Shown here piece by piece: positions 1,805-23,200 of a stretch of DNA of 45,710 bases (within the stretch, counting starts at the first letter, position 1; each line of letters opens with the position of its first letter). The notes below the pieces were generated by a model. The model saw only the letters and a list, made by a program, of their open reading frames with translations. It was not told where the DNA came from and did not search any database. A program made the position numbers and the translations under genes. The stretch spans positions 1-45,710 of IMG/VR virus record IMGVR_UViG_3300021142_002250; one strand, given 5' to 3'. Origin of the DNA: a virus.

Positions 1805-1832
1805 ATTAAACAATAAACAATAAAACAAAAAG

Positions 1833-2045: not shown

Positions 2046-2046
2046 A

Positions 2047-2658: not shown

Positions 2659-2680
2659 ATTATTTATTATTTTGATATAA

Positions 2681-2699: not shown

Positions 2700-2712
2700 T
2701 AATAATAAAAAA

Positions 2713-3054: not shown

Positions 3055-3067
3055 ATAGTATATATTA

Positions 3068-3079: not shown

Positions 3080-3086
3080 AATAAAA

Positions 3087-3494
3087 ATGTATATTATGAA
3101 TATCCAAAAGTTATTAGATAAATATAAAATTAAATTAGACCACAAAATGATATTAGATATGTGGAATGAATCTAACAAATCTAAATATAATCTTGATTAT
3201 TTAACTAGTATTTTAGAGTCTATAAATGAAGATTATTCAGATTCTAAAATAGATGAGAAAACTAAAGAAAAATTAGAATTAATATCTTTATTTAATAATA
3301 TATCATCTAGTAAAGAAAAATGTTGTGATTTATTAAAAAACTCTTGTTTAGATAAGAACAATCAAGATATTAAAGAAGTTATTTTAGTTATAAATGATTC
3401 TAAAAATTACGAAGATTTAGATGAATTAGATTCTATGTTATTTAATGGATATTCATCAGAACTTTCTTCTACTTTCAGTAAATACATTAAATAA
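3087..3494 (+). CDS. Small acidic protein before the giant fibre gene
   Basis: A 135-residue acidic, helical protein of unknown family (MYIMNIQKLLDKYKIKLDHK ...). ATGs at 3087 and 3096 are both possible; the upstream one sits only 7 bases after a TTTAATATATAA motif, so the downstream ATG would give a slightly longer leader. It is followed after 27 bases by the 2934-residue fibre gene on the same strand, so they are probably co-transcribed. That placement suggests a chaperone or adaptor for the fibre, but the sequence itself gives no support for this. Confidence 0.6.
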   Translation: MYIMNIQKLLDKYKIKLDHKMILDMWNESNKSKYNLDYLTSILESINEDYSDSKIDEKTKEKLELISLFNNISSSKEKCCDLLKNSCLDKNNQDIKEVILVINDSKNYEDLDELDSMLFNGYSSELSSTFSKYIK

Positions 3495-3521
3495 TTTACT
3501 AATAAAAAAAATTTTAATTAA

Positions 3522-9500: not shown

Positions 9501-12326
9501 ACATCTAGTTATGTTTTTGTTGGTAATTTTGAAAATACTGCAAGATTTAAATCTTTATATTATTCTAATTCTAATTCTCAACTTTCAAATAATCAATATA
9601 ACGTAAAAGCATTTACTAATATTCATAATAATTTATCTTGGGATCCTTCAAATGATGCTTATTATAATGTAAATGCAGCTGAATGGGATTTGGTTCATAA
9701 TTATGGGAAATCATTAACAGCCTCAACAACTAATACAGGGAATACTACAGATACTTTATTTTATAATTATTGGAAAATTCCAACAACAGATACTTATACA
9801 TTAGGTTTACAAATTCCATTTATTTTAAATTTAGGAGATAGTTATAATAGACACACATTTGTTGATTGGGGAGGATATCATGATTCATCAAGAGGTGGTG
9901 GAAGTGTTTATTTTAAACTATTTGGATGTATTGAATATTGTCTATTTGATTATGATGATATATTAAATGAAGATAATTGGACTATATTAGGTACTACTTA
10001 TATGACATTAGATCCAAATTTAAAAAATATAAATAGTTTTGACGCTTATATTAAAGTAGGTACTAATCAATTTGACGGAAGTATAAATTTTGATAATGAA
10101 AATATAGTATCTGGACTATTAACAATAGATAATTTTTCTTATACTTTTAATAAAGGAGATAGGGTTAGATTTAATTTATATACTATAGTAGGTCCTCAAA
10201 ATAATAGAACTAATAATTCTATTGATAATAATATACAACCACCATATTCAGATATAGGATTTAATACTAGTGGTATTATTAGTTCTTTAAATAAACCAGG
10301 AACACAAATGAATATAGCATTTCCAGGAACTAGAACATATGCTTCTATAACATTTAATCCTACTTCTCAAAATATACCACTTGATGGCTTTGGTGCAACA
10401 TATCTATCACCAAAATTAAATCAAAGAATATTAAATTATCCTTATAATAATAGTGGATATTTTGAGATATATACTTCAAATAGTATATCATATTTAGAAA
10501 ATGATAATGTAACAATATCAAAAAATAGATATTCATTATCTAGATTTGATATTGCAAGTACTAATGCTATACTTAATTCTCAACCATCAATAGATCCTAT
10601 TAGTACAACATTTTCTTTTAATATATCTAATAATGAAATTACATTTCCTGGTTTATATAGTAATATATTAAAAATAGGTGATTATATATCTTTATCTGCT
10701 TCAAATGATAAATTCTATTTCACATTAACAAATGTTAATTTAAATTCTTATCAAACAACAACAATTACATCAAAAGGGGCTACTATAAATGTTAATAATA
10801 TTACTATTTTAAATACTTTAGAAAATTTACCGTTATTACAAGATAGTTATTTTACACTAACTTTAGAAGATAGAATTGTTATACCAAATATATTTCAATT
10901 AAATATACCAAAAATGTATTCTCCAAATAGAAATATAATTAATTATATTTCTAATATTAAAAATGGTAATACCCAAAATGTTTTTTATGAATATTTTTAT
11001 AATAAAAATTTATTTAGATTTTATCTAGAAAATAGTGGAATTTATGAATTTTTATTTAATAAAATAAATTTTTATGAGGTAGATTCAATCCCATTTTTTA
11101 ACTATTGGGAAAATATAAATAATATCAATTTTAATATAGAAATTCCAAATATTGCTAATTATCCAAATATTGATAATACAAAAAATATTTATGATATTTT
11201 AGGAAATATATCTGTTAATTTTACACAAGGGGTTATTGGTAATTCAGCTTCAAGTTTAAATAATTATTATTTATCTAATTATTATATATTCTTCGCATTA
11301 AAAGGTATCATATCTTCTAATTATACTACATACTCCATAGTTAATGATATAATAACTATAGTTGGTGAACCTAGTTCTGAATTAAGTCAATTAATAAATG
11401 ATACTATCAATCCTACTAGGTTTTATATAGATGATTTAGCAAATACCCAAATTTATTCATTCCCAACTTCATTTAAAGGATATGATTATGCTACTTTTAG
11501 TCCTAGCCTAACTTATAGCTTACTAATTTACCCAACAGATACTATTACAACTACACAAAAAAGTAAATATATTCCTATAGATATATATAATACTGATTTA
11601 ACTCCTTTAAATAATTTAACTATCAGTTGTGATTATCCAGATATTACAGGTAATATACCTTATTGTTTAAATGCTCCTTTTTCAGTAGTTATTGATGGAG
11701 ATGGTTCAACAGTAAATATTAATACAGATTGGGGTATTTATATAAATGGTATAATTATACCATCATCTTATAAATATAATAATTTAGTTTCTATTGGTAA
11801 TAAACCAATAGAGATGTTTAATACGGATAATAGTTATATGGGTTATACTTTTAGTACTATTGATGATTTAATGCAAAAAACATATAGCATAGTTTATAAA
11901 CCAACAGTAACTATTGATAGTTACACATATTCCCCTGCTTTTTATTATGTAAATAATTATAATGTTGAACCTAATGTAATAATAGCTTCTGCTTCTATAT
12001 CGTTCACATATTCTGATGCAGGTACTTATTCATATGGTATAGATAATTTAATTTATTCTACAACAGCAAGTGGTAGAAGATATACAACTATTGAATGGTC
12101 ATATGATAATGGACCTTATAGTTTTTTCACAACATCTGTTAGTAATCCGCCAAGTTATAATATATTCAATATAAATACAGATGGAACTATTGATTATTCC
12201 CCTAACTTCCCATTTGATGTTGCAGGAAATACATATTCAATTAGAATAAGTGCTACAACTTCTAATTATTCAAGTAGTTTATTTACCCCTTCTGTGTATA
12301 CCTTCTCTGTGGTATATGGACAATAA
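3522..12326 (+). CDS. Giant phage fibre/tail protein with W-x-x-G-x-F repeats
   Basis: A 2934-residue virion protein, extremely rich in Asn, Ser, Tyr, Thr and Ile and without transmembrane segments. About residues 225-300 and 770-1200 consist of repeats such as WNNGVFNNGIFYDGYWLNG, in which Trp/Phe and Gly recur every 5-10 residues; isolated copies return near residues 1595-1610 and 1725-1770. About residues 395-430 form a pentapeptide-like ladder (NNSQIYNSQINNSLVINS). Such periodicity suggests a beta-solenoid shaft. The last 100 or so residues look like an immunoglobulin-type beta domain (GRRYTTIEWSYDNGPYSFF ... ITATTS-like strands). I infer a long tail fibre or cell-contact protein. The start ATG is preceded by an A/T-rich leader without a Shine-Dalgarno sequence. 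The gene ends at a bidirectional terminator. The assignment as structural is firm; the exact virion location is not known. Confidence 0.85.
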   Translation: MSQNIVLGYTSNLLNYAEVYYINGNPKTAIYSEINTNIQAGDKVFIMNGIYDSQKYIDIGKYAQNADGYTVLYTNNCQIVIDLAYTYSTIFTQSYYTDNLDNYKKIYNITSQREFDYINQIFVDSYTYSDYYTYNRISKFEYGLTNNIIYSASTFSGISSTNSIGQNSGISATNSFWTRNGNTWLNITSEFISGSFSGIPYNGRIMIFGEDFNYNRTLLKQRNIYNYSNTTYNWYIDTLYKKPIISRLSFQGGSFHGIHNNGIFGNYKTNQVWDNNGTWNSGFFVNSTWESGVMNSKSDESSTSYYAELVNNKVKQHFDYSNNNGYGYNFILDSNINSGIINDGNVINTNVVGLDNTYILSATSSNNITLNGGFYDFCDFKNVNINNSETLDSIISNSTINNSQIYNSQINNSLVINSKLNGSNVLNIISADISYYVSETIQERGILKLYISESDFLRLDLMDNFYITNIDKNFLLNSLSLSQKLLMPYELRYVIDSIFNPDFADNLIISLKTPFDNNNLVDIFVYENIYRPHENRFIDNPNKNYSIDIDFGSFLTSSNTYLTKNNVNNLFSNAYISNGDINEGLVDSSEFINYTNINYNTNIIAGSSSNLSITKVNNNLSVILNSPNEYSTGTLKVGNYVWLDSIMFNNTQDISGTYSIVSITYSNTNIYLGLSNSSIVSLLSTGTYSIVDGLFNKNYVNTVKISNSNINSGLFLGTLFKSSTFFNSNFDNTNLSLNNLSLLRLVGLNINDPNLIFNNATVKSSVINNTTWNSSIAVDCIWNNNVFNNGIFYDGYWLNGTFNNGLFTNNDGVLQNISYSDLQLYNNWYDGVFNSGTFYKSIWVKGTFNNGLFYNSDWYSGIWNNGILGDNSVPHSKTTFGVSQSFGVSQSYWYDGIVKNANVGGDGNVYWYNGIFYNGIFNSTLGIGYSIWYDGQFNGGDFTGNSIWQYGIFNGGKFLSTYKNTFINSTQSTDYTWQGGIFNEGLFSTQSTWYNGEFNGGIFNGIVWNNGVFGGGNFVGSGNNILLGSDSDYVNQFTQSFYGLWRNGIFSEKKQYKIYDTTLDIKETAIFDSGLWQNGLFDSTSGQFNNSAWLAGNFNNGNFNGGIFNPYCDSILQGNTSSYSYNLNIIPNDSNVCVWNNGNFYSGNFNFSNWNNGNFYNGNMTGAVWNAGTWYYGNANNIYWVSGTWLNGQWNGSPYDYTILDDNNNVINGPEKQILSRIGLLNSNIHLNNVFTGTYSSIGKLGWTQSSDNNLVWNSDSNGIYLPSFVYSNPIFKPSTTHPLSYQTKYDIYSEYAFSFQIGDTITENEIYSISFGSFYTVSYKATSTDTYNDVLLKLADLINSDAYLSSSKVIWHYSQNADVAVGNTSITDPVIRSGVILKDYELFIYYSSLRSDLVPSATSSKVSTINNNQSKQLNFTIGSSSNIFSTASNYLIDLTLKSVGGSSYFKIGYSNKSQSYTLNGQQTYTIPLKQTNSGLSNQELSIIKLSTSFGNPTFSILSYNVSIYETTYSDYCNTFTSSLITYPNITNTYSTIINSSTISLGNIDPNLVTTYKVDTGDGTSGFLTINFGNGKFGSFPSSDGVNTLISNSSIWKGGAWNNGYWNSNPIDRLTNLTYLNIDNYTWNITLTTPKNSSLDLTSSKYSFITGDNVLISNIVGLDINNNRVLITNLNKVLSVTPYIENLDGSEVLSTITIQILVKYPILRIEQDSLFHTIKLTKTSWLSGVFTNGLFEGIWNYGMVKGYPYITRFENTHWIDGIFDGGTFKSDPLGSQSTGLIQNFTFRDNNISDTNSIGTNLGFKYNSWMDLNYDNNSMTNIYKDNYIYNQDYQLSIPDMNLNGYPTSDVLSSKSYFRNSYDSNIVYYSLGSKYQIYTDFIGDGAIFNNSYSNQINKLGLDKFYELGWTFSQDSNLNISSNTSLSNTNKLYVSNDNPNAKSSRIGIKYAIVSDSKVASTDPKAPISKTTTRILNPGSNITTYSSTNNNNSGQGGTSSYVFVGNFENTARFKSLYYSNSNSQLSNNQYNVKAFTNIHNNLSWDPSNDAYYNVNAAEWDLVHNYGKSLTASTTNTGNTTDTLFYNYWKIPTTDTYTLGLQIPFILNLGDSYNRHTFVDWGGYHDSSRGGGSVYFKLFGCIEYCLFDYDDILNEDNWTILGTTYMTLDPNLKNINSFDAYIKVGTNQFDGSINFDNENIVSGLLTIDNFSYTFNKGDRVRFNLYTIVGPQNNRTNNSIDNNIQPPYSDIGFNTSGIISSLNKPGTQMNIAFPGTRTYASITFNPTSQNIPLDGFGATYLSPKLNQRILNYPYNNSGYFEIYTSNSISYLENDNVTISKNRYSLSRFDIASTNAILNSQPSIDPISTTFSFNISNNEITFPGLYSNILKIGDYISLSASNDKFYFTLTNVNLNSYQTTTITSKGATINVNNITILNTLENLPLLQDSYFTLTLEDRIVIPNIFQLNIPKMYSPNRNIINYISNIKNGNTQNVFYEYFYNKNLFRFYLENSGIYEFLFNKINFYEVDSIPFFNYWENINNINFNIEIPNIANYPNIDNTKNIYDILGNISVNFTQGVIGNSASSLNNYYLSNYYIFFALKGIISSNYTTYSIVNDIITIVGEPSSELSQLINDTINPTRFYIDDLANTQIYSFPTSFKGYDYATFSPSLTYSLLIYPTDTITTTQKSKYIPIDIYNTDLTPLNNLTISCDYPDITGNIPYCLNAPFSVVIDGDGSTVNINTDWGIYINGIIIPSSYKYNNLVSIGNKPIEMFNTDNSYMGYTFSTIDDLMQKTYSIVYKPTVTIDSYTYSPAFYYVNNYNVEPNVIIASASISFTYSDAGTYSYGIDNLIYSTTASGRRYTTIEWSYDNGPYSFFTTSVSNPPSYNIFNINTDGTIDYSPNFPFDVAGNTYSIRISATTSNYSSSLFTPSVYTFSVVYGQ
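5835..7110 (+). repeat. Region coding for W/F-x-x-G-x-F repeat ladder
   Basis: Within the giant fibre gene, this stretch codes for several dozen degenerate units of the forms WYNGEFNGGIF, WNNGNFYNGNM and FNGGKF. At DNA level it shows recurring words such as AATGGTATATTTAATGGTGG that could recombine to change the repeat number. Confidence 0.8.
6159..6194 (+). repeat. Perfect tandem 18-bp duplication
   Basis: TTTGGAGTATCTCAATCA occurs twice in direct tandem (6159-6176 and 6177-6194), coding for FGVSQS twice. The exact identity within a degenerate repeat array indicates a recent in-frame duplication. Confidence 0.9.
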
Positions 12327-12357
12327 AAAAGAGAGCGTTTAAACGCTCTCTTTTTTT
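12326..12357. terminator. Bidirectional terminator between fibre and dnaJ-like genes
   Basis: A palindrome AAAGAGAGCGTTTAAACGCTCTCTTT flanked by A's on the left and T's on the right, so it can end transcripts from both strands. The stop codon of the minus-strand DnaJ-like gene (12339-12341) lies inside the hairpin, and the fibre stop codon (12324-12326) abuts it. Confidence 0.9.
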
Positions 12358-13073
12358 CTTACTAACCAAAGGTGTCCGACTTTTCCAGGTATGTTGGAAA
12401 AATGTCCCATACAATCTACTTTAAAATCTTTTGAATCAGGTGGTATTTTTATACCACTTAATTTTTGTTTACCTAAAATCCTTTTTTCTCCTTTGCAAGT
12501 TTTACACTCTACAAGACCTACTTTACCTAAACCTTTACAAACAAAACATGGTTGATCATTATAATCTTTACCAGTTCCTTCACATAGTTCACATCCATCA
12601 TCTCCTTCAAAATATTTTATATTACCATTAATATCTTTTATTTCTATTTTAGTTGAAGTATCTTTTCCAGAGCCTTTACAAGTTTTACAAACAACTAATC
12701 GTTCGTATTCAATTTCACCATTAAAAGTATCATCTATATATACGATAATATTAAGACCTTCTTTTTTCTTGAAATCTTCATACTTATCTTCATCCCATGC
12801 CTTACTTAGGTTATTAAATTCAAAATTTAATAACTCAGTTAGTTCATCATAAGATGAACCCCATTTACTTTTAGTATCATATTCTTTTCTTGAATTTTCA
12901 TCCATTAGAATATCATAAGCTTCAGATAATAAACGAAAGTTTTCAGAATCTCCTCCTTTATCCGGGTGATGCTTTTTTGACAAGCTATAATAAGAACGCT
13001 TAACTTCTTTTTTATCAGCATTAAAACTAATACCTAATAATCCGTAATAATTTTTATTAAAATCTATATTCAT
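12339..13073 (-). CDS. DnaJ-like (Hsp40) co-chaperone
   Basis: A 244-residue protein with an N-terminal J domain (residues 8-66) carrying the HPD motif at 36-38 (KKHHPDKGG), which stimulates DnaK ATPase. A central zinc-finger region has four CxxCxG-type motifs (CKTCKGSG, CELCEGTG, CFVCKGLG, CKTCKGEK), as in type I DnaJ. The Gly/Phe linker and most of the C-terminal substrate-binding and dimer domains are missing, so it is much shorter than the usual 370 or so residues. The ATG overlaps the stop of the bS21 gene by one base (TAATG), indicating translational coupling. It probably redirects host DnaK to phage proteins such as large fibres. Confidence 0.88.
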   Translation of the reverse strand: MNIDFNKNYYGLLGISFNADKKEVKRSYYSLSKKHHPDKGGDSENFRLLSEAYDILMDENSRKEYDTKSKWGSSYDELTELLNFEFNNLSKAWDEDKYEDFKKKEGLNIIVYIDDTFNGEIEYERLVVCKTCKGSGKDTSTKIEIKDINGNIKYFEGDDGCELCEGTGKDYNDQPCFVCKGLGKVGLVECKTCKGEKRILGKQKLSGIKIPPDSKDFKVDCMGHFSNIPGKVGHLWLVRKKESV

Positions 13074-13264
13074 TAATCTATATTCTTATTTAGCTGTTCT
13101 TTGTAAATAGCTTTTTTAATTTCTGCTCTTCTTTTTACGGAAGGTTTTGTATAAGTTTTTCTTGCTCTTAACATTTTTTCTGTTTTAGTGCTATCAAACT
13201 TTCTTTTTAGTTTTTTAATAGCTCTTTCTAAGTTTTCTCCGGGTTTAATTTCGATAATTATCAT
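13073..13264 (-). CDS. rpsU: Ribosomal protein bS21 (phage-encoded)
   Basis: A 63-residue basic protein, full length for Bacteroidetes bS21: MIIIEIKPGENLERAIKKLK, then RKFDSTKTEKMLRARKTYTK and PSVKRRAEIKKAIYKEQL. The GENLERAIKK.KRKFD and YTKPSVKRR segments are family hallmarks. bS21 binds the 30S platform near the 3' end of 16S rRNA. In Bacteroidetes ribosomes bS21, bS18 and bS6 help occlude the anti-Shine-Dalgarno sequence, and a tyrosine near position 54 of bS21 is, as I recall, one of the contacting residues; here residue 54 is Tyr (KKAIY). The gene overlaps the upstream membrane-protein gene by ATGA and the downstream dnaJ-like gene by TAATG, so it sits in a coupled operon. Phage-encoded bS21 is known from large phages and is thought to replace host bS21. 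Confidence 0.93.
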   Translation of the reverse strand: MIIIEIKPGENLERAIKKLKRKFDSTKTEKMLRARKTYTKPSVKRRAEIKKAIYKEQLNKNID

Positions 13265-13671
13265 TTTTTTAATAAAATTTTATTATAAAATAAATTAAAG
13301 CATACGTTTCTTAAAATACTTAAAGTTATAAAATAACCAAATATAAACAAACCACTATAATCTATGTTTATAGACACAGCTACTAAAATAGCCATTATAA
13401 TTAATAATTCTTTAATCATTTTGAAAAAGTGCCAAGCATCTGTTAATTGAACAGGATAGTTAAACTCAATTCCAAAAAAATTAATTTTTTTAAATCCATT
13501 TGCAGGATTATCATTGATGTATTTATTTACCCAACTAATATTCTTATTCCAAATATTTGGGTTCATTTTCTTAAATATACTTATACTAAAATGATCAGAA
13601 CATGTATCCATAACGGCATCACATACGCCACTCAAACAGTATAAAATAACTGGTATAATTGCTAACCACAT
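13261..13671 (-). CDS. Small membrane protein, unknown
   Basis: A 136-residue protein with an N-terminal hydrophobic segment (MWLAIIPVILYCLSGVCDAV), a central soluble loop rich in Trp, Asn and Lys (NPNIWNKNISWVNKYI), and two more hydrophobic segments near residues 88-105 and 107-122, giving two or three membrane passes. It is the first gene of a coupled set with bS21 and the DnaJ-like gene (ATGA overlap with bS21). No family was recognised. Confidence 0.65.
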   Translation of the reverse strand: MWLAIIPVILYCLSGVCDAVMDTCSDHFSISIFKKMNPNIWNKNISWVNKYINDNPANGFKKINFFGIEFNYPVQLTDAWHFFKMIKELLIIMAILVAVSINIDYSGLFIFGYFITLSILRNVCFNLFYNKILLKK

Positions 13672-13681
13672 ATCTATTTAT

Positions 13682-13939
13682 TTATTTTTCTTTTAATAAA
13701 GTTTCTAACTTAGAATATCTAATTAGATCTTTTGTTATTAAAAATATAGGATTTCTATCCACTAGGGATAATCCTACATATTTAGCTCTTAATGTATCAT
13801 ATATTTTTATATCTAAATAAGGCTCTTCTGCTTTATATAATTCTACATCATACTTTTTTAAGTTAGTAAAATCATATTCTTTCTCTAATTCATACGTTAT
13901 ATCTTGATAATAACCACTTACAATCTTAAACTTTATCAA
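13682..13939 (-). CDS. Hypothetical protein
   Basis: An 85-residue protein (KIVSGYYQDITYELEKEYDF ... RAKYVGLSLVDRNPIFLITK) that is charged and has alternating strands, with no recognised family. The only in-frame start is TTG at 13939, since no ATG precedes the conserved-looking N-terminus, so the start is uncertain. It lies 10 bases upstream of the membrane-protein gene and 26 bases downstream of the gp46-like gene, so it is probably in the same minus-strand transcript. Confidence 0.5.
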   Translation of the reverse strand: MIKFKIVSGYYQDITYELEKEYDFTNLKKYDVELYKAEEPYLDIKIYDTLRAKYVGLSLVDRNPIFLITKDLIRYSKLETLLKEK

Positions 13940-13965
13940 CTTAACTATATATTTTATTCTATATA

Positions 13966-15654
13966 TTAGATTTTTTCTTCCTTAATATATGAAAAAACTT
14001 CCTTTTCTATATGAATTATCCTATCAAAACTCTCTTTATTTAAAACAGCATGGTGTATCAGAAAAATATTTATTTTATATTCAGTAGCAAATACTTTAAA
14101 TAAATCTAATATCTTTTGAATATTATCCACATCAATTGTGGCAAATACTTCATCTAAGAATAGTATATTAATATGTTTTTTAGTTCTAATTAATTTAAGA
14201 TAAGCAATTAATATAATGATATTAATCATCTTATTTTCCCCACTTGATAAAGTATCGTGATCTATTACTTCATTTAAGTGTTTAATTTCAGCGGTAAAAG
14301 TTTCATCAAGAACTACTGTATATTGTAAACCAATCTTTTTTAGATTTTCATCAATAAACTTATTAATAGGACTAATAATATTAGAGATTATATTTTTCTT
14401 AACCCCATCTTCTCCTAAAATTTTTTGTAATTCTTTATAATAAACTTCTTTTTCTTTAGATGAAAGACTATTATCTTCACTAACTTTTTTCTTATCTTCT
14501 ATTTCTTTAATAGTGTTTTCAAACTCTACAATAGAAGTATTTTTTGAGCTACTATTAACTTTTTGATTTTCTAATTTAGAAATTTGTTCTTTATAGCTTT
14601 TCATTAAGTAAGTTATATCACTAAAAGAACTATTTGCTTTTTCTGAAATATCATTAAGTTTAGTTTGTCTTTCTCTTAAAGTTTTTAGATTTAACTCAAC
14701 TTCTAATTTAAGTTCTTCAACTTTTTTCTTCTTATCTAATAAAATATTTTTTAATGATTCAAAATGATCTGATTCAAAAGATGTTCCACAAGTAAAACAT
14801 TTCCCAGAATTATATAAATCAATTTCTTTTTGACAATTTCTTATATCATTTTGAATATTGATAAATTGTTCTTTTTCTTTATCTAAATCCGTTTTTAATT
14901 CTTTTTCTTTAAGTTTTATCTTATCAATTTTATCTTTTAATGCTAAATATTCATCTTTTTTAGATTTAATATTTTCATTGATTTCATCAATTTCTAATTG
15001 AATATTTAACTTTTCTGTTTGTAAAGATTTGTCAATAGACCTTTTTATAGAATCTAATGACTCATTAAATGAATTAATTTCAGAATCGTATTTGATTAAT
15101 TGTTTTTTATTAGCAGCATTTAACTCTTTTAAAATAACATTTAAATCATTAATTATATCTAAATTAAATAATTTATCTAAAAGAATTTGTTTTTCTTCTG
15201 AGGTTAGAGATATAAAATTTTTAAAATCATTTATACTCATAGATATAAATGAATTATATGTTTCTAAATCTATTCCAATATAATTTACGATTTTTTCATC
15301 TAAGTTAGATTTACCTGCTCTATTATTTTCAACCCCATTTTCATAAAGTTTTAATACGTTTGGTCCAATACCACGATGTACTTCTACTTCTGTTCCATTG
15401 GAACTAAATTTAATTTTATTAAGTAATTCTCCATTTATACGATTAGGTAAAGTTGCTAAAGTAGCAAATTTTCTTTTTCTACCACGAACTTTTCCATATA
15501 AAGCATATTCAAAACTTGATAAAAACGCACTTTTACCTTGACCATTTTGTCCAGCAATCAGAATAAGTTCCCCATTTTCTTTATTTAATTTTAAAACTTG
15601 TTCATTGTTTCCAAATGATTTAAAACCTTTTATTGTTATTTCATCTATTTTCAT
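13966..15654 (-). CDS. SbcC/Rad50/T4 gp46-like recombination nuclease ATPase subunit
   Basis: A 562-residue SMC-type ATPase. From the N-terminus: MKIDEITIKGFKSFG and the Walker A loop GQNGQGKS; long coiled coils on either side of a zinc-hook motif (GKCFTCG) in mid-protein; then the ABC signature LSSGENKM, Walker B ILFLDEVFATID and the switch His in IHHAV. Length and layout match T4 gp46, which with the gp47 nuclease resects DNA ends for recombination-dependent replication and host DNA breakdown. No gp47 partner is in this window. The ATG at 15654 is preferred over the one at 15675, because MKIDEITIKGFKSFG is the usual family start and the extra residues are hydrophobic filler. The broken TnpB-like gene lies immediately upstream. 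Confidence 0.93.
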   Translation of the reverse strand: MKIDEITIKGFKSFGNNEQVLKLNKENGELILIAGQNGQGKSAFLSSFEYALYGKVRGRKRKFATLATLPNRINGELLNKIKFSSNGTEVEVHRGIGPNVLKLYENGVENNRAGKSNLDEKIVNYIGIDLETYNSFISMSINDFKNFISLTSEEKQILLDKLFNLDIINDLNVILKELNAANKKQLIKYDSEINSFNESLDSIKRSIDKSLQTEKLNIQLEIDEINENIKSKKDEYLALKDKIDKIKLKEKELKTDLDKEKEQFINIQNDIRNCQKEIDLYNSGKCFTCGTSFESDHFESLKNILLDKKKKVEELKLEVELNLKTLRERQTKLNDISEKANSSFSDITYLMKSYKEQISKLENQKVNSSSKNTSIVEFENTIKEIEDKKKVSEDNSLSSKEKEVYYKELQKILGEDGVKKNIISNIISPINKFIDENLKKIGLQYTVVLDETFTAEIKHLNEVIDHDTLSSGENKMINIIILIAYLKLIRTKKHINILFLDEVFATIDVDNIQKILDLFKVFATEYKINIFLIHHAVLNKESFDRIIHIEKEVFSYIKEEKI

Positions 15655-15691
15655 AATTATTATTTGATATTTCACTTATTGAAATAAAAAA

Positions 15692-16999
15692 TTAAACATT
15701 GAAAAAAGTAATAAAACTTTTATTATGAATAAATTTTCTAAAAACAACTGAATCAGTTGAAACTCTATATTTCAATTTAAAGTTTTTTATAATTTCAAAT
15801 AATTCTTTCCATGTGTTTGGTAATTCATTAACCTTTTCCTTCCATTGGTGTTTTAATAAATCTTTAATCCATATATTTGGATAAAATTTCTTTGATTTTT
15901 TAATTATTATTTCATATCCTCTTCTACCTATTTCTATTGAAGCATTGACAGGATCTATATGTTCATTCTGTAAATTACCTATAAAACTTGAATAAGCAGG
16001 ATTTATTTTAAATAATTTCTGAAAATTAATTTTACTTCTTTTTTCTAAGTTATCAATTAATATATTTCTTTTCCACAAATTTTTACATAATCTATTAAAT
16101 TTTCTTCCTTTACTCTCCACAGATTTAAAATTAAGATCTTAAACAAATATAAATTTACATTTATAATGTAAAGATAATTTACTTATTTGTTTAGATATTT
16201 CTAAAATTTCATGATTTAATTTATTATTTAAGTAAATAGATTCTTTTGAATTATTAGCTTTACCTAAATTTTTAATTTTATTAGTTAATTTTGATAAATT
16301 AAAACAATTTGTATAAACAATTTCTTCTTTATTTTTAATTGAAATTCCTATATATTCTGAATTTAAATCAATTCCTAAATAAACATTATCTTTTAATTCT
16401 TTATGTTGAATTTGCTCTTCAAAAGAAATATAAATATATTTATCATCCAATTTAACTTGATATGTTAGACCTCCTTTCTCATTTAACTCTTCTAATAAGT
16501 ATAAATCTTTTTTATAATTATTTCTTAAATTTGGTAAATCTAATATATAGTGTTCTTTACATTTATGTTTATAAATAATTTTATTATTTTCTATAATATC
16601 TAATTTAAATTTTCTATTCCCATGTTCTACTTTTTGCCCATAAATAGTTAGAGGTAATAATCTATTTTCTTGATATTCTTCTTTACTTATTTTATTTTTT
16701 AATAATTTGATAAAATTTGATTTACCTCCAAAAATAACTTTATTATCAGGATTTCTTGTTAAGATTGCTTTTGCTTCTAAAATACCACATTGTTTAACCC
16801 ATGCGTCTAAATTATTTATGTTATTTAAACCATTTAAACCATTTAAACCATTTAAGAATGAACGAATATCTTTTTCTGTATATCCTTCTTTTAATCTATT
16901 AAAAGAGTATCTAACTACAGATGAATATTCTTTTCTTAATAAATTTAACTTTTCTTGAAATTCATTAGATGATTTATATGGTAATTTTATCGTTAACAA
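15692..16999 (-). pseudogene. TnpB-like RuvC nuclease interrupted by a stop at the RuvC-II glutamate position
   Basis: One 435-codon reading frame carries a single in-frame TAA (16139-16141). The first part has a TnpB-like N-terminal region with IFGGKSNF near residue 90 and the RuvC-I motif YLGIDLNSEYIGIS with Asp211. The second part has INPAYSSFIGN and the RuvC-III motif HIDPVNASIEIGRRGYE with Asp349. Reading through the stop gives CKFIFV-stop-DLNFKS, where the family has V-E-D-L, so a single G-to-T change (GAA to TAA) accounts for the loss of RuvC-II Glu287. TnpB is the RNA-guided nuclease of IS200/IS605 and IS607 elements. No CxxC zinc finger lies between RuvC-II and RuvC-III and no tnpA is adjacent. 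The start is also poor: only TTG (16999) is available. A GTG at 16120 could restart the C-terminal part, but that piece lacks two of the three acidic residues. Confidence 0.75.
16824..16855 (-). repeat. 9-bp tandem repeat in the TnpB-like gene
   Basis: TTTAAACCA is repeated 3.5 times (plus-strand sense), encoding the tripeptide GLN/LNG ladder at residues 49-60 of the TnpB-like frame. It keeps the frame and is a likely slippage site. Confidence 0.9.
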
Positions 17000-17048
17000 A
17001 CTTATTTTGTTTTTTAATTATATATTATATAAATATTTATAAAAATGT

Positions 17049-17652
17049 TTATATATCAAACATTTTTAAATTTCCTTCTTTATCATATCCAAAATTTTTC
17101 CAATTAGTATCTATATAATGATTACCATAATAATATTCTGGTATTTTAGATATTTTAGTTAATATATTAATCCATCTATCAAATATTTCTTTTACTTCTA
17201 TATTTTTAGAAATTAATTCATTAACTTCTTCTAATGAAGGGGTTTTTATTTTAATAAAGTTGAAAACTGGTAAATTACCTTTAACAATTTTTCTTAAAAA
17301 ATTCATAGTTAAATCATATGGATAGTTAGAATCATACTTACCAAAAAAATTTTTTTGTATAAAAAATTTTGTTAATATATCAAATTCTTTTTTTAACCTT
17401 ACCAATATCTAACCTTTCTTGAATTATTACCCCTTTTTTATAATTTACTTTATAAATTTTATCAAATAAATCTGGATTATGCTTACCAAATAACTCTTCA
17501 GATCTTATAATATATGGGTAATGAAGACTAAATGTTTTAAACATATAGTTAGGGTTTGTATTACTTAAATATACAGTTTTAGTGCTACCAAAATTATTAA
17601 AAGGTTGTTTTTTAATTAACATCTCATTAAATTTTTTCCATTTATGTATCAT
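17049..17652 (-). pseudogene. Kinase-like protein frameshifted in an A7 run
   Basis: Two overlapping open frames (17380-17652 and 17049-17405) together match the intact neighbour at 17649-18197 end to end. The first gives HKWKKFNE ... TVYLSNTNPNYMFKTF ... YKKGVIIQERLDIGKV; the second KKEFDILTKFF ... HYIDTNWKNFG ... LKMFDI. Removing one A from the run of seven on the coding strand (about 17388-17394) joins them as VKKEFDIL, matching VKKELDYL in the neighbour, to give about 200 residues. The fold looks protein-kinase/aminoglycoside-phosphotransferase-like, but the catalytic loop is D-T-N-W-K-N instead of D-F-H-S-N-N. The first frame overlaps the stop of the upstream paralogue (ATGA). Either a frameshift mutation, a sequencing error or slippage explains the break. 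Confidence 0.7.
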
Positions 17653-18197
17653 ATATCTAATAATTTTTTATCTTCGCCTATATTATTAGAATGAAAATCT
17701 AAATAATATTTTTTATATTTTTTCGGATCTATTTCTGATATTTTTTTAATAAAATTAAACCATTTATTAAATAAATTAAATTCTTTTTCTTTGAATTTTT
17801 CTTTTATTATATCATAAGATAAATCTTTATAACTTACATAATAATATAAATTTGGATTTTTTATTAAAGATTTAATAATATTGAATACATCATTATCATA
17901 TCCTATTCTTTTAAGTTTATTTGTTAAGTAATCTAATTCTTTTTTAACTATATCTGTATTTAATTTTTCTTGAATCATTATACCTTTTTTGTAATCTATT
18001 TTATAGATTTTAGCATAAATATCAGGATTATCATTTGAAAATTGTACTTCGAAATAAACTTTATCAACTTGATAAAGTTTAAATGTTTTGATAACTATAT
18101 CAGGATTAGATTTACTTGCATATACATTTTTGTATAATCCAGTGGTATTATACGGCTCTCTTGCTTCATTAAAACTTTTCCAATTATATACAAACAT
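17649..18197 (-). CDS. Small kinase-like protein (intact paralogue)
   Basis: A 182-residue protein with a kinase-like outline: an N-lobe-like segment with GLYKNVYASKSNPDIVIKTF (candidate nucleotide-binding lysine in VIK), a linker YKKGIMIQEKL, and near the C-terminus YYLDFHSNNIGEDKKLLDI. The last fits D-x-H-x-x-N followed by a metal-binding D-I/D-F as in protein kinases and aminoglycoside phosphotransferases. It stops directly after DI, so it is a minimal or truncated version. I chose the ATG at 18197 because the upstream start (18239) would overlap the nucleotidyltransferase gene and adds an unlikely leader. The N-terminus (MFVYNWKSFNEARE) resembles those of other possibly packaged proteins in this window. 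Substrate unknown. Confidence 0.6.
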   Translation of the reverse strand: MFVYNWKSFNEAREPYNTTGLYKNVYASKSNPDIVIKTFKLYQVDKVYFEVQFSNDNPDIYAKIYKIDYKKGIMIQEKLNTDIVKKELDYLTNKLKRIGYDNDVFNIIKSLIKNPNLYYYVSYKDLSYDIIKEKFKEKEFNLFNKWFNFIKKISEIDPKKYKKYYLDFHSNNIGEDKKLLDI

Positions 18198-18207
18198 AAT
18201 ATATAAA

Positions 18208-18807
18208 TTATTTTTTAGAACATTTAATTCTAAAATCATGCATTAATTCATTATTATATGGTTTCCACCTAGCATCCAATTCTTCCCAAGTCCATTTCTT
18301 ACTATTAATTTCTTCCCATATCCAATTACAAGAAGTAAAATCTGTTATTTTATTTTCAGTAGCTAATTGAATACCAAAATTAGCAATTCTCATAGAATGA
18401 AATAAACTCTTAATACCAATATAATAATCACCTTGTGCTAACTTCTTTTTAGATTTTACGTAGCTTATAGAATTAGAATGTGATATAGAATGGCGTAAAC
18501 TTGGTTTATTAATTTCAAAATCAAAATCTTTATTAGTTACTAACTTAGCCCAAGCAGGTGCATAAATACATTCCAAATCACGTATATTATGATTTTTTAA
18601 ACCTAATAAAAATCTATCTTCTGATAATAGATGTATATTATATATATCGGATTTAAATTCCTTTTCTGTTATAGATGATTTAGCAATTACTATAAAATCT
18701 CTATCAGAATTTTTATTGACATTACCGTACACAGAACTACCGAACATGTAAATGTTTATTATTCTTTTAGGGTGTATGTTTGTTATATTTAGTATATCTT
18801 GTATCAT
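18208..18807 (-). CDS. Nucleotidyltransferase (Pol-beta superfamily)
   Basis: A 199-residue protein with the superfamily signature FGSSVYGNVNKNSDRDFIVI at residues 22-41: the GS motif (23-24) and the metal-binding Asp35 and Asp37. The C-terminal half is helical (DYYIGIKSLFHSMRIANFGI), as in minimal nucleotidyltransferases with a helical partner domain. Such enzymes transfer NMPs to antibiotics, proteins or RNA ends, and MNT-type members act as antitoxins. The adjacent kinase-like genes downstream on the same strand suggest a shared pathway, but no substrate can be named. The ATG at 18807 is preceded by TATAAATATATTATT, which contains the TATAAATA sequence of T4 late promoters, possibly by chance. 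Confidence 0.8.
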   Translation of the reverse strand: MIQDILNITNIHPKRIINIYMFGSSVYGNVNKNSDRDFIVIAKSSITEKEFKSDIYNIHLLSEDRFLLGLKNHNIRDLECIYAPAWAKLVTNKDFDFEINKPSLRHSISHSNSISYVKSKKKLAQGDYYIGIKSLFHSMRIANFGIQLATENKITDFTSCNWIWEEINSKKWTWEELDARWKPYNNELMHDFRIKCSKK

Positions 18808-18817
18808 AATAATATAT

Positions 18818-19138
18818 TTATAATTTAAAATATTTTTTTATATAATCACAATTTTCATATTCTTCTAGTTCTTTAAAAAATTCAATTGCTTTTTTTACCA
18901 ATTCTTTGTTAGGTTCATAATTATCTCTATATATAGATGTATATAAAATATAATAATATTGTAAAATTGATAACATGTTACTCATATTATCAAAATGTTC
19001 TATTAAAATATTCATATCAAAATTTGGGTTTTTATTGAAATTTTTTTGTAGATCTTTAACAGGACTTTTATTAAGATTATTAACAAAATCTTTTTTAAAA
19101 TTAGGAAATTTTTCCTCTATAAATTCTTTCCGAGTCAT
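18818..19138 (-). CDS. Helical protein with EEYENCDYIKKY tail
   Basis: A 106-residue protein (MTRKEFIEEKFPNFKKDFVN ...) ending AIEFFKELEEYENCDYIKKY. The last 20 or so residues are shared almost exactly with the end of the GIY-YIG pseudogene next door and resemble UVR-type helical hairpins. The DNA coding for the tail is a 38-bp exact repeat of 19211-19248. A decayed relative of the middle part (NKNPNFDVNN) lies at 20902-20979. Function unknown. Confidence 0.55.
   Translation of the reverse strand: MTRKEFIEEKFPNFKKDFVNNLNKSPVKDLQKNFNKNPNFDMNILIEHFDNMSNMLSILQYYYILYTSIYRDNYEPNKELVKKAIEFFKELEEYENCDYIKKYFKL
18828..18865 (-). repeat. 38-bp direct repeat, copy 1
   Basis: An exact 38-base match to 19211-19248, coding in both places for EEYENCDYIKKY. 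It indicates a recent exchange or duplication of the C-terminal tail between two unrelated genes. Confidence 0.9.
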
Positions 19139-19206
19139 ATTTTTTATTAATTTTATATTTAAAATTAATAAAGTTTATCCAAAAAGGAATAATAATATAT
19201 TCACAA

Positions 19207-19906
19207 TTATAAATATTTTTTTATATAATCACAATTTTCATATTCTTCAAATTTCTCAAAATAATTAATAGAATCATAAATCAAATTTTTATCAAAAATC
19301 AATTTTTTATCATATATAGCGGTATGTAAAACTTTATAATATGTTAAATATAACAAAAGTTCTTGGCTATATGAATTATATATTTTTACTTTTTCTAAAC
19401 CAAAATCTTTTCTAATTGAAATATTACATTCATTTAAAATTTTTTTTATAGTTTCTCTAGACATTTTTAATTCATTACTAATATCACGTGTAGTTTTCCC
19501 TTCTAAGTAAAGATTAGATACTAATTCATATTTTTTCTCCCTTTTTCTATTATTATTTTCTTTTAATTTATTTTTTGTTTTCTCACTTATTATAAGACCT
19601 AAATTATTTTCTGCTATTGGTCTTCCATTATAACCATTATTATATGAATTATAATAATTTATATAATATTGTTCTTTTAATAATACATTTGTTGAATCAC
19701 ATTCTTCTATCAATTTAAATATAAGATTTTCTTCTGAATATTTATTATAAGCATTTTGTATTTTTTTAGGATTTTTATTTTTTCTAAAATAACTTATATG
19801 GGATTTCCATCTAGCATATAACCCATATGGTCCAACCGCACTACCTATATAAACTTTACCATTATTATTCTTGAAAGTTTTTTAAATCATTAAATGTATA
19901 CTCCAT
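19207..19906 (-). pseudogene. GIY-YIG homing endonuclease, frameshifted in an A6 run near its start
   Basis: From the ATG at 19906 the frame reads MEYTFNDLKNFQE and stops. The next frame, with no ATG, reads KNNNGKVYIGSAVGPYGLYA, then RWKSH ... KEQYYINYYNSYNNGYNGR and a helix-turn-helix segment (KTTRDISNELKMSRETIKKI). Deleting one A from the six at 19878-19883 would join the two as FNDLKTFKNNNGKVYIG, a normal GIY-YIG start. The family makes double-strand breaks to spread its own gene. The only start available without the shift is a TTG at 19713, which would omit the whole catalytic module. The C-terminus has the shared EEYENCDYIKKY tail. A TATATTTG promoter lies 79 bases upstream. Confidence 0.8.
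19211..19248 (-). repeat. 38-bp direct repeat, copy 2
   Basis: The second copy of the exact 38-base repeat, coding for the end of the GIY-YIG pseudogene. The flanking sequence stays similar but not identical. Confidence 0.9.
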
Positions 19907-19984
19907 TTTTAATTGTTATTTTAATTATATATTAAAAATTAATAGGTCCAAAATGGTATATTTTAATCATACTTTTATACATTA

Positions 19985-20002
19985 CAAATATAAAAAAAAT
20001 TT
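19985..20002 (-). promoter_or_regulatory. Promoter-like T-tract + TATATTTG for the GIY-YIG pseudogene
   Basis: On the minus strand: AAATTTTTTTTATATTTG. It shares the T-tract and TATATTTG with those before prs, gltX and the CoaE-like gene, and it lies between the end of the metalloprotease-like gene and the GIY-YIG pseudogene. Confidence 0.5.
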
Positions 20003-20863
20003 TTATAAATATTTTGAATAATCTATTTGATAATGATCGAAATTTTGATTTGATTTAATTGATTCGAAATTAAGATAAGTTTTTAATATTTTGTTTTTAA
20101 ACTTTAAATTAAGATTTATTATCTCATTTAAATAATTTTTAAAGCCTTCTTCATTTATATTAAGGTCATTTAAAAAATCATTAAAATCTTTTTTCGTTTT
20201 TAATAATTTTAATATTTTAAAAATATCAAGGTTTATTATAAATAAACAATCTTTATAAATAGTATTATTTTTTATAAAATTTATAATTTTATTCTTATCA
20301 GATAAATTACTTTTTTCTATTTCTGAATTAATTTGCTCAACCCTTGATCTCATTTCATGAGGTAATGATAAATACATTATATGTATTATATCTTGTATAT
20401 TATTGTCAGTATATTTTTTTCTTAAATTAAAAATAATCTCTCCTTTTTTCCAGGAATTAGCTAATTTTTTTTGATTTTTGTCAGTAAAATAAATTTCTAT
20501 TATATGTAAAAATTCATGTCTAATAGTATCTACTATTTTATTATAATTTATATTTTTTAATTTTAAATCTTGTATGTTTAATTGTAAATATAAATTCATT
20601 TCTAAATCATAAATAATATCATTTGTTATAAAATAATTTTCCATATTTATATTACCATATGTTTTATTACTTAAATAAACATTTATTTTACTAAATTTAA
20701 AATTTAATTTTTTAAAAGAATCAATTGATATATGTAGTTTACCATCTTTTAGTAATTTTGGAAAATTACTATTTATTAAATTGATGGTATAATAACTCAA
20801 ATCTTTAGCTAAATTATTACTACCATATTTTTCCAACAAAAAATCATTATAAAACTTTATCAT
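20003..20863 (-). CDS. Putative HExxH zinc metalloprotease
   Basis: A 286-residue protein with the zinc-binding motif HEFLH at 116-120 (TIRHEFLHIIEIYF), followed about 45 residues later by LPHEMRSRVEQI, whose Glu could serve as the third metal ligand. No signal peptide. The N-terminus (MIKFYNDFLLEKYG) fits the M-x-x-aromatic-x-x-F-x-x-E pattern of T4 capsid-targeting sequences, so packaging in the head is possible but inferred. The ATG lies three bases after TTTTAATATATAA on the minus strand, which supports this start and late expression. The substrate is unknown. Confidence 0.65.
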   Translation of the reverse strand: MIKFYNDFLLEKYGSNNLAKDLSYYTINLINSNFPKLLKDGKLHISIDSFKKLNFKFSKINVYLSNKTYGNINMENYFITNDIIYDLEMNLYLQLNIQDLKLKNINYNKIVDTIRHEFLHIIEIYFTDKNQKKLANSWKKGEIIFNLRKKYTDNNIQDIIHIMYLSLPHEMRSRVEQINSEIEKSNLSDKNKIINFIKNNTIYKDCLFIINLDIFKILKLLKTKKDFNDFLNDLNINEEGFKNYLNEIINLNLKFKNKILKTYLNFESIKSNQNFDHYQIDYSKYL

Positions 20864-20866
20864 AAT

Positions 20867-20879
20867 TTATATATTAAAA
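20867..20879 (-). promoter_or_regulatory. TTTTAATATATAA motif before the metalloprotease-like gene
   Basis: The candidate phage promoter on the minus strand, ending three bases before the ATG at 20863. If it is a -10 element the transcript would be nearly leaderless. Confidence 0.45.
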
Positions 20880-20901
20880 TATGATTTCGTAATTAAAATT
20901 T

Positions 20902-20979
20902 TCATACTTTCATCATAATTGTTACATTATTCACATCAAAATTTGGGTTTTTATTTTTTTAGAACTTTTTAAGTTGATT
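20902..20979 (-). pseudogene. Remnant related to the gene at 18818-19138
   Basis: Reading the minus strand gives NQLKKF-stop-KNKNPNFDVNNVTIMMKV-stop, which matches DLQKNFNKNPNFDMNI in the protein at 18818-19138. A 21-base exact DNA match (ATCAAAATTTGGGTTTTTATT on the plus strand) lies in both. The internal stop and short length show it is debris left by a duplication. Confidence 0.6.
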
Positions 20980-20989
20980 TTCTAATAAA

Positions 20990-21436
20990 CTATGCTATTT
21001 TTTCTAAAATAGATTTTATTTCAATACATTTTTCATATTCTTCATTTTTTTCAGCTCTTTTTAAAAGAAGTTTTAATGTATCTAAATTTGAATTTTCTCC
21101 ATTTATTTTCATTTTTTTACAATAAAAATAGTAGGATATTTTAGAACCAAATCCAATATTATAATAATTAGGTATATATAAACCAAGATATATATTATAT
21201 CTTATATAATCAATTTCAATACACCATTTTGTTAATTTTGTTCTTCCTATATCAATATAGAATTCTTTACATAATTTACATTTTTCTAAATGCGTTGCAA
21301 ATTCTAAATGGTTTACTTCAATTTTAATTCCATGATCATATCCGTTGTTATCAATTTCCTCTGTACCTAAAAGGAGTATACCATGTTCTTCTAAATTAAT
21401 TTCTTCTTTAGTTTCTAACTTAATTATTTTTCTCAT
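20990..21436 (-). CDS. Hypothetical protein with Cys pair and UVR-like C-terminus
   Basis: A 148-residue protein from the ATG at 21436 (MRKIIKLETKEEINLEEHGI); the upstream ATG (21469) adds only a Lys/Ile-rich leader. It has a CKLC pair (HLEKCKLCKEFYIDIG), which is a possible half metal site, and a Tyr-rich centre (RYNIYLGLYIPNYYNIGFG). The C-terminus LLLKRAEKNEEYEKCIEIKS resembles a UVR hairpin and the tails of the genes at 18818 and 19207. Function unknown. Confidence 0.55.
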   Translation of the reverse strand: MRKIIKLETKEEINLEEHGILLLGTEEIDNNGYDHGIKIEVNHLEFATHLEKCKLCKEFYIDIGRTKLTKWCIEIDYIRYNIYLGLYIPNYYNIGFGSKISYYFYCKKMKINGENSNLDTLKLLLKRAEKNEEYEKCIEIKSILEKIA

Positions 21437-21496
21437 ATTAATTATTTTTTTTATATAAAATTTTACCATAAAAAATAAAAAAGTTTATATAAAAAG

Positions 21497-21525
21497 ATAC
21501 AAAAATATACAAAAATATACAAAAA
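21497..21525. repeat. 10-bp tandem repeat in a divergent promoter region
   Basis: AAAAATATAC occurs twice in tandem (21501-21510, 21511-21520) with partial copies on both sides. It lies between the minus-strand gene at 21436 and a small HTH gene at 21555, where it could be an operator. Confidence 0.7.
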
Positions 21526-21797: not shown

Positions 21798-23186
21798 ATG
21801 AAAACATATACTGAAAAATTTATTGATAGTCATAAAATACTTAAAAAAGCTATAGTAGGTATAGAATTTGAGTTTTTTATGAAAGAATTATCTTATTATA
21901 AAACTTTAGAGATACTTAATCAATATTTATCTCCTATAAAAGTTCATGGGTTTCGTGTTTATCATCCAGATTTTAAACCAGATAAGGATAATTTTATTCT
22001 TTCCCCAGACTTGAGCGGTGGAAATTCCCTCGTAGAACTAATAACATCTCCATTAGATTATTATAGTGCCAAATTCTATTTGGTTAAAATAGTAAAATTT
22101 ATTCAAGATTATGGATATACAAATGAAAAATGTTCAGTCCATTTTAATATTTCCTTTGATAAGGATAAAGATATTGATTTAGATTTAAATGACTTAAATA
22201 TGCTTAAATTAATTCTTGAAATTGATGAAGAAGAAATTTATAGATACTATCCAAGTAGAAAAGATAATGTATATGCTAAAAGTGTTAAAAGAATGATTCC
22301 TTATAAAGAATATGACTTTAATAGTATATCAATTGATATAGTTAAAAATAATTTAAGATTACCTAACGATAAATATTATGGAATTAATTTTTTAAATATT
22401 AATAATGATAGAGAATCTCAAAGATTAGAGTTCAGATATATTGGAGGACAAGACTATGAGAAAAATGTGGGTAATCTATTATATTTTTTAGACAAGTTTA
22501 TTTTAAATACTTTTTATTGCCTTAATAAGCCATTCACAGATACTAATATGCAAGATTTAGAGAATTATTTAGATAAAAATATAAGTTATTTTAATACTTT
22601 TTCAAAATTTGATAATTTTATCGTGGAGTTTCCAGGTATAGCAATTCAAATTGACCAAATAAATGATTATGATGTTATTAATGCTTATTATCCTAAACTA
22701 TATACAAAATTATATAATTTATTAGATTCTTGTCAAGATTTGAAAAATTGTATAATAAATTATGTTACAGAAACACAAAAAATTGAAATAATTGATGCTA
22801 CAATAAAATCTAATTTTAATATTAAAAATTATGACTTTATTAATTGTAATGTCCAAAATGGTATATTTGAAGAATGTGGATTTGTAAATTCAGAACTTTA
22901 TAACTCACAAGTTATAAAGTGTAGATTAGATGGAACTAAAATAACAGGTTCTAAACTATTAAATTGTCATATGGAATCTTATTTAGTTAAGGATTCATTT
23001 TTTATGAATGGTTATATAAACTGTGAGATGGAAAATGGGGTGTTTCGCAGTGGAAAATTAGGTCCTTATGCTAGTATAAGTTCAACTACAAAAATAGTAT
23101 CTGATAAAGATAATTTCTTTGATACTAAGTTTGATGATAGTAGTTTAAAGAAAAAAGATATAGGAAATAAAAAACTCGGTTTATAA
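21798..23186 (+). CDS. Amidoligase-like protein fused to a pentapeptide-like tail
   Basis: A 462-residue protein. The N-terminal 320 or so residues match the outline of the amidoligase (COOH-NH2 ligase) family: GIEFEFFM at 21-28, LVELITSPLD, SVHFNISFD and RLEFRYIGG, the Glu/His-rich positions expected to bind ATP and metal. That family joins a carboxylate to an amine and includes peptide-tagging and cell-wall enzymes. Residues about 345-430 form a ladder (NCNVQNGIFEECGFVNSELY ... FFMNGYINCEMENGVFRSG) like that in the giant fibre. The N-terminus (MKTYTEKFIDSH) loosely resembles the T4 capsid-targeting start MKTYQEF. The gene ends inside a terminator hairpin shared with the convergent Hef-like gene. 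The enzyme call is moderately sure; the tail may target it to virions. Confidence 0.65.
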   Translation: MKTYTEKFIDSHKILKKAIVGIEFEFFMKELSYYKTLEILNQYLSPIKVHGFRVYHPDFKPDKDNFILSPDLSGGNSLVELITSPLDYYSAKFYLVKIVKFIQDYGYTNEKCSVHFNISFDKDKDIDLDLNDLNMLKLILEIDEEEIYRYYPSRKDNVYAKSVKRMIPYKEYDFNSISIDIVKNNLRLPNDKYYGINFLNINNDRESQRLEFRYIGGQDYEKNVGNLLYFLDKFILNTFYCLNKPFTDTNMQDLENYLDKNISYFNTFSKFDNFIVEFPGIAIQIDQINDYDVINAYYPKLYTKLYNLLDSCQDLKNCIINYVTETQKIEIIDATIKSNFNIKNYDFINCNVQNGIFEECGFVNSELYNSQVIKCRLDGTKITGSKLLNCHMESYLVKDSFFMNGYINCEMENGVFRSGKLGPYASISSTTKIVSDKDNFFDTKFDDSSLKKKDIGNKKLGL

Positions 23187-23200
23187 ACCGAGTTTTTTTT
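23169..23200. terminator. Bidirectional terminator containing both convergent stop codons
   Basis: The palindrome at 23171-23196 has arms AAAACTCGGTTTA / TAAACCGAGTTTT, flanked by A's and T's. The plus-strand stop (23184-23186) and minus-strand stop (23181-23183) both fall in its centre, so the two coding regions overlap by six bases. Confidence 0.9.

What the first reader, a model, noticed from the sequence alone, without database searches (positions are those of the whole stretch)
16136..16144. TnpB-like gene broken by a stop precisely at its RuvC-II catalytic glutamate
Frame-preserving read-through of the TAA at 16139-16141 gives CKFIFV-[stop]-DLNFKS, where the family has V-E-D-L. A GAA-to-TAA change is a single base, and it removes the one residue needed for cleavage while leaving RuvC-I (Asp211) and RuvC-III (Asp349) intact. 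An internal GTG at 16120 could still start a C-terminal piece. Either this is a fresh inactivation, or the truncated N-terminal product (RNA/DNA-binding, no RuvC-II) has been kept as a nuclease-dead regulator, as reported for TnpB derivatives.
Basis: partly seen in the sequence, partly recalled or inferred. Interest (0 to 1): 0.85.

Follow-up and report, generated by a model that had tools for sequence, protein, structure and literature searches.

The report
Phage TnpB gene with fresh stop
A large phage carries a TnpB-type RNA-guided DNA-cutting gene that one base change has stopped exactly at an essential active-site residue, but a nearly identical sister phage has the intact gene, so this looks like an ordinary recent loss rather than a new regulator; the almost wholly phage-borne gene family it belongs to is the more interesting part.

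Summary
The minus-strand frame 16999-15692 (435 codons, TTG start) has TAA at 16139-16141, codon 287. A sister contig, 99.91% identical over 31 kb, reads GAA there and is otherwise identical across the 1308-base gene. In 32 homologues Asp211, Glu287 and Asp349 are invariant and the predicted fold matches Cas12f/TnpB, so codon 287 is the RuvC-II glutamate.

Fresh inactivation is best supported: one change, no further decay in the gene. RuvC-III is not spared, because the stop truncates the protein before it; a GTG restart still lacks Glu287. A retained regulator has no support. The position is 1 of 309 possible nonsense changes, 254 of which would kill the enzyme equally. Neighbouring genes carry window-specific lesions too, so sequence error is not excluded.

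Beyond the finding: the gene belongs to an almost wholly viral TnpB clade (Lak, Campylobacter and other large phages) that lacks the zinc finger, is linked in several loci to an IS607-type serine recombinase, occupies different sites with empty alleles in sister phages, and has a covarying two-hairpin RNA (probable ωRNA scaffold) inside the 3' end of its reading frame.

The parts
15692..16999 (-). tnpB-like reading frame, 435 codons plus stop, TTG start, broken at codon 287
   Evidence: intact in sister contig G001
16139..16141 (-). Premature TAA at codon 287, the RuvC-II Glu codon (GAA in the sister)
   Evidence: E in 32/32 homologues
16139..16999 (-). Truncated frame, 286 aa: N-terminal lobe and RuvC-I only
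   Evidence: domain order inferred from the model
15692..16120 (-). Possible GTG-started C-terminal frame, 142 aa, with RuvC-III but without Glu287
   Evidence: translation not shown
16367..16369 (-). RuvC-I Asp211 codon
15953..15955 (-). RuvC-III Asp349 codon, downstream of the stop
15760..15785 (-). Hairpin 1 of the putative ωRNA scaffold, inside the ORF (8 bp, 10-nt loop)
   Evidence: covariation across 29 sequences
15745..15759 (-). Hairpin 2 of the putative ωRNA scaffold (CAACTGATTCAGTTG)
   Evidence: strong in the family, weak for this copy alone (z -0.51)
15660..15679 (-). Inferred guide segment just past the element's right end, in the sbcC leader
   Evidence: inference by analogy with right ends of relatives; boundary uncertain by a few bases
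13966..15675 (-). sbcC-like gene directly downstream; relatives have it without an adjacent tnpB
   Evidence: phrog_77 E 2.2e-61
17049..17652 (-). Upstream gene of unknown function, frameshifted in the window by one T (17388) relative to the sister's 200-aa frame
   Evidence: no Pfam match

Best explanation
This is a recent loss-of-function (nonsense) allele of a phage-borne TnpB. The intact gene encodes a RuvC nuclease, predicted to be RNA-guided, of an IS607-linked, zinc-finger-less clade that moves among phages and probably spreads by cutting unoccupied target sites. Its guide RNA is probably made from the 3' end of its own reading frame plus the sequence just beyond it. In this phage one G-to-T change on the coding strand turned the RuvC-II Glu codon into TAA. 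The product is a 286-aa fragment without RuvC-II and RuvC-III, hence no cleavage, and a GTG restart cannot supply Glu287. SHOWN: the stop, GAA in the sister, invariance of the triad, the fold match, the covarying RNA, and insertions with empty sites in Campylobacter phages. INFERRED: that the RNA is an ωRNA, that intact members cut and home, that the fragment is inert, and that the base is not a sequence error.
For: Single-base difference from a 99.91% identical sister. D211/E287/D349 invariant in 32/32 homologues. Fold match to Cas12f and TnpB. No full-length fetched homologue examined has an in-frame stop other than recoded TAG. Other copies in the clade also decay: internal-deletion relic in G005, F379 copy split in two CDS, CJLB-14 copy with many deletions. 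Three occupied sites with empty alleles in sister phages.
Against: Reads are not available. Four differences within 16.1-19.2 kb all look derived in the window, which also fits a stretch of poor sequence. No cleavage, RNA or transcription data. The TnpB assignment rests on fold and motif; sequence-profile searches alone do not find it.
Confidence: 0.78

Rival explanations
1. The stop is a sequencing or assembly error, or a minor-strain base in the consensus; the phage really encodes the full 435-aa enzyme.
For: The sister has GAA. All four window-sister differences in 16.1-19.2 kb look derived in the window, including a homopolymer T7/T6 frameshift and a 12-nt deletion between TTTT repeats.
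Against: The other differences across 31 kb are clustered and mostly synonymous, as in real strain variation, so the record is not generally error-rich; the change is a plain substitution, not a homopolymer error.
Confidence: 0.14
2. The truncated protein is kept as a nuclease-dead RNA-guided regulator (TldR-like).
For: The N-terminal lobe and RuvC-I remain, and the 3' RNA structure is intact in the DNA. RuvC-dead TnpB repressors exist and some are phage-encoded (PMC13418256).
Against: Private to one strain; 0 substitutions after the stop, so no history of selection on the fragment can be seen; no clade of truncated homologues; the only other match of the assumed guide in the contig has 3 mismatches in 18, and no host genome is known.
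Confidence: 0.04
3. The stop is read through by a recoded TAA or a suppressor tRNA.
For: Some relatives sit in TAG-recoded phages.
Against: All ten window genes checked end in TAA; no tRNA gene found in the window; the sister has GAA.
Confidence: 0.01

Closest known systems
ISCaje4 TnpB of Campylobacter phage CP220 and its copies in phages WX1, CJLB-13 and F379
   Same: Homologue (35% by tblastn, about 40% in the alignment), same invariant triad, no zinc finger, same hairpins at the 3' end of the ORF
   Different: Some Campylobacter copies have an upstream serine recombinase (complete in WX1, partial in CP220); the window has none. Published as IS200/IS605 type (PMC2853527)
IS607 TnpB guided by RAGATH-18 RNAs (ISFba1, 8iaz)
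   Same: TnpB fold (Foldseek E 4e-8) and association with an IS607-type transposase in part of the clade
   Different: No Rfam match to RAGATH-18; the RNA lies inside the ORF, while the RAGATH-18 RNA is independent of the coding sequence (PMC11061315)
ISDra2 TnpB (IS200/IS605)
   Same: RuvC D-E-D triad and fold (E 1.2e-6); guide RNA overlaps the end of the gene, as stated for IS200/IS605 TnpB in PMC11061315
   Different: ISDra2 has a CCCC zinc finger between RuvC-II and RuvC-III (PMC10097598); this clade has none
TldR (TnpB-like nuclease-dead repressors)
   Same: Loss of RuvC catalysis in a phage-borne TnpB
   Different: TldRs arose as clades, keep guide RNA and DNA binding and are tied to other genes such as fliC (PMC13418256); here one truncated allele next to an intact sister

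Membership tests
TnpB (superfamily) | RuvC D-E-D triad | tested here: met
   Invariant in 32 homologues, intact in the sister; the window allele lacks the Glu
TnpB (superfamily) | TnpB/Cas12 fold (WED-REC-RuvC) | tested here: met
   Foldseek to Cas12f, TnpB and Fanzor with low E-values, but TM-scores of only 0.2-0.35
TnpB (superfamily) | CXXC...CXXC zinc finger between RuvC-II and RuvC-III, as in ISDra2 TnpB and Cas12f | tested here: not met
   No CxxC in any of 32 members; hence filed as a variant
TnpB (superfamily) | Guide RNA at the 3' end of the gene | tested here: inconclusive
   Covarying structured RNA found there, but no RNA or binding data
TnpB (superfamily) | RNA-guided DNA cleavage | not testable with these tools
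   Needs biochemistry
IS607 element | Serine-recombinase TnpA next to tnpB | tested here: inconclusive
   Complete in eight fetched homologue loci and in WX1, Pfam Resolvase in the two tested; absent in the window and in most loci
RAGATH-18 IS607 TnpB | RAGATH-18 RNA next to the gene | tested here: not met
   No Rfam match
TldR | Inactive RuvC shared by a clade | tested here: not met
   Only the window allele is affected; 32 intact relatives
TldR | Retained guide RNA and DNA binding of the mutant protein | not testable with these tools
   Needs biochemistry
CRISPR-Cas12 effector | Adjacent CRISPR array | tested here: not met
   No direct-repeat family of 22 nt or more, copies within 200 nt, in 12300-21500

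The most novel reading that the evidence does not exclude
The nuclease is lost but the guide RNA, encoded downstream of the stop, survives and is used in trans by another TnpB copy in the unseen rest of this genome, or the 286-aa fragment competes for that RNA. The locus would then be a guide-only or dominant-negative unit of a phage homing element.
Probability: 0.06. Interest if true: 0.7.

Novelty: new variant of a known kind. Interest (0 to 1): 0.38.

Why it matters
The stop itself is an ordinary loss, though it gives a natural near-isogenic pair (TAA against GAA at the catalytic Glu) for asking what TnpB does for a phage. The clade matters more: a TnpB group found in 39 viral loci but only 2 loci in a scan of one genome for each of 84,980 bacterial and archaeal species, without a zinc finger, inserted at different sites with empty alleles in sister phages, and with a probable guide-RNA scaffold constrained inside coding sequence. 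It makes the question whether phage TnpBs act as RNA-guided homing endonucleases directly testable.

Tried and rejected
Pfam and PHROGs gave nothing significant for the protein and NCBIfam only a sub-threshold TIGR01765 match. Profile searches against PDB sequences gave only weak Cas12 hits (E 0.09 and 1.2); only the fold comparison was decisive. Profile comparison with a canonical TnpB from G005 failed except for 17 columns at RuvC-III. A scan for other contigs with the same 40-base site found only the sister. TAA read-through was considered and rejected. A CRISPR effector was rejected (no array). An empty site for the window's own insertion was not found: sbcC relatives are too distant, so the guide and left end of this copy remain inferred.

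Full report
CHECK. The gene lies on the minus strand, 16999 to 15692, TTG start, 435 codons. Codon 287 is TAA at 16139-16141. The window is a 45,710-base virus record. A second virus record, IMGVR_UViG_3300032675_000094 (31,018 bases, G001), aligns end to end with window 14506-45512 at 99.91%: 15 substitutions and two indels. Within the 1308-base gene it differs by one base, GAA in place of TAA.

IS THIS THE RuvC-II GLUTAMATE? Yes. Thirty-two sequences (the intact sister and 31 homologues 27-60% identical to it) keep D211, E287 and D349 without exception. The sister protein with this alignment gives a good AlphaFold2 model (mean pLDDT 84.6, pTM 0.57), with E287 at the end of a strand and D349 at the start of a helix, as expected for RuvC. 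Foldseek finds Cas12f (E 1.9e-11), ISFba1 TnpB (4e-8), mimivirus Fanzor2 (1.1e-6), ISDra2 TnpB (1.2e-6) and RuvC itself. TM-scores are low (0.2-0.35 for the Cas12/TnpB hits), so the match rests on E-values. Sequence methods alone do not find the family.

WHAT THE STOP DOES. It leaves 286 residues: the N-terminal lobe and RuvC-I. RuvC-II and RuvC-III are lost. The GTG at 16120 would start a fragment with RuvC-III but without Glu287, so even both halves together lack the triad. The phrase 'leaving RuvC-III intact' therefore does not hold at the protein level. Read-through is disfavoured: ten of ten window genes checked end in TAA, no tRNA gene was found, and the sister has GAA.

CHANCE. The intact gene has 309 possible single-base nonsense changes. 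One hits a catalytic codon, because the two Asp codons cannot become stops in one step; 254 lie before or at codon 349 and would inactivate equally. The striking position is best read as coincidence.

FRESH LOSS OR ERROR? Window and sister differ elsewhere in two clusters (27.3-27.9 kb and 36.9-37.3 kb) of mostly synonymous changes. In 16.1-19.2 kb there are four events, and all look derived in the window when compared with the sister, paralogues or homologues: the tnpB stop, a T7/T6 frameshift in the next gene (17388), a 12-nt in-frame deletion between TTTT repeats in its paralogue (17664), and a two-base change that shortens the 19207-19713 gene by two residues. That pattern fits either relaxed selection on an accessory cassette or poor sequence quality there. 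Only reads can decide. I put error at about 0.14.

REGULATOR? TldRs are several clade-level events of RuvC inactivation that keep RNA and DNA binding and became tied to other genes (PMC13418256). Here the allele is private to one strain. There is no evidence for retention.

WHAT THE FAMILY IS. A conserved-motif scan found 39 viral loci but only two loci in the collection with one genome for each of 84,980 bacterial and archaeal species; tblastn found Lak phages, Campylobacter phages and other large phages. Several contigs hold two or three copies. Gene neighbourhoods differ from phage to phage. None of 29 sbcC relatives has this TnpB nearby, so in the window TnpB is the inserted piece, ending 16 bases before the annotated sbcC start. 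A complete serine recombinase with an IS607-type layout lies directly upstream of tnpB in eight fetched homologue loci and in Campylobacter phage WX1; the two copies tested match Pfam Resolvase. It is absent in the window. No member has a CxxC motif, and RuvC-II to RuvC-III spacing is 58-66 residues, whereas ISDra2 TnpB and Cas12f have a zinc finger there (PMC10097598).

EMPTY SITES. Campylobacter phages carry near-identical copies at three sites, each empty in sister phages. All three copies end in GAAGTTTATATCT, after which the sequence differs by site. The left flanks at the insertion points end in TTTAT, AATAT and TTTAT. These fix the right end and suggest an A/T-rich TAM ending in TAT; with three sites this is a lead only, and the target side of site C also differs between strains.

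GUIDE RNA. Just before the end of the ORF most members have an 8-bp hairpin and then a second hairpin of variable sequence. Hairpin 1: 98.7% of cells paired, covariation score 0.379 against at most 0.031 when slid, 0 of 500 shuffles; one pair switches G-C to U-A (18 against 11 sequences) and another C-G to G-C (17 against 9). Against synonymous-codon randomisation the region is far more stable than expected: mean z -2.25 over 34 members against -0.11 for 98 control windows, p = 9e-12 (members are related, so this p-value is optimistic). The window copy alone is weak (z -0.51). No Rfam family matches. In RAGATH-18 IS607 TnpBs the guide RNA is independent of the coding sequence (PMC11061315); here it is not. 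I read this as an ωRNA scaffold; that is inference. The stop mutation leaves it intact in the DNA.

DECAY IS COMMON. G005 holds a relic that joins about the first 120 bases of the gene (90% identical to 16886-17008) to about its last 75. The copy in phage F379 is split into two CDS and that in CJLB-14 is riddled with deletions. A dead copy is unremarkable in this clade.

NOVELTY. I found no paper describing this clade as such. CP220's ISCaje4 was named in 2010 as an IS200/IS605-type element (PMC2853527); a search for TnpB with Lak phages found no paper in the held library, which lacks most subscription journals. New variant of a known kind; the nonsense allele itself is ordinary.

Noticed in passing
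window 16141-19210 against G001 1636-4716: Four window-specific lesions cluster in 3.1 kb (tnpB stop, frameshift at 17388, 12-nt deletion at 17664, two-base change at 19209-19210), all apparently derived in the window.
   Followed up: partly
L087 and L091, about 1800-4010 (also L088, L097): sbcC relatives are split by about 2 kb at the Walker A motif (GNNGNGK/S); the second piece begins with an intein-like C-terminal end (...EYYSNGILSHN|SSF) and another long frame lies between the halves: looks like a split intein with an inserted gene.
   Followed up: partly
L012 1505-1684 (record G005): Relic of the same TnpB: 5' and 3' ends of the gene joined by an internal deletion, beside a diverged member of the family and a canonical zinc-finger TnpB in the same record.
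   Followed up: partly
window 23181-24977 and 39406-40554: Two homing-endonuclease-like genes (phrog_3339 E 1.3e-124; phrog_20162 and phrog_314), so the phage carries several homing-type genes.
   Followed up: no
window 17049-18239: Two adjacent paralogous genes of about 200 aa (one frameshifted in the window), no Pfam match for the one tested.
   Followed up: no
window 3522-12326: A 2934-aa frame rich in repeated NGxFxxGxW-like motifs, perhaps a tail or surface protein.
   Followed up: no
window 16820-16860: Short repeat in tnpB encoding NGLNGLNGLNN, an insertion relative to homologues, present also in the sister.
   Followed up: no
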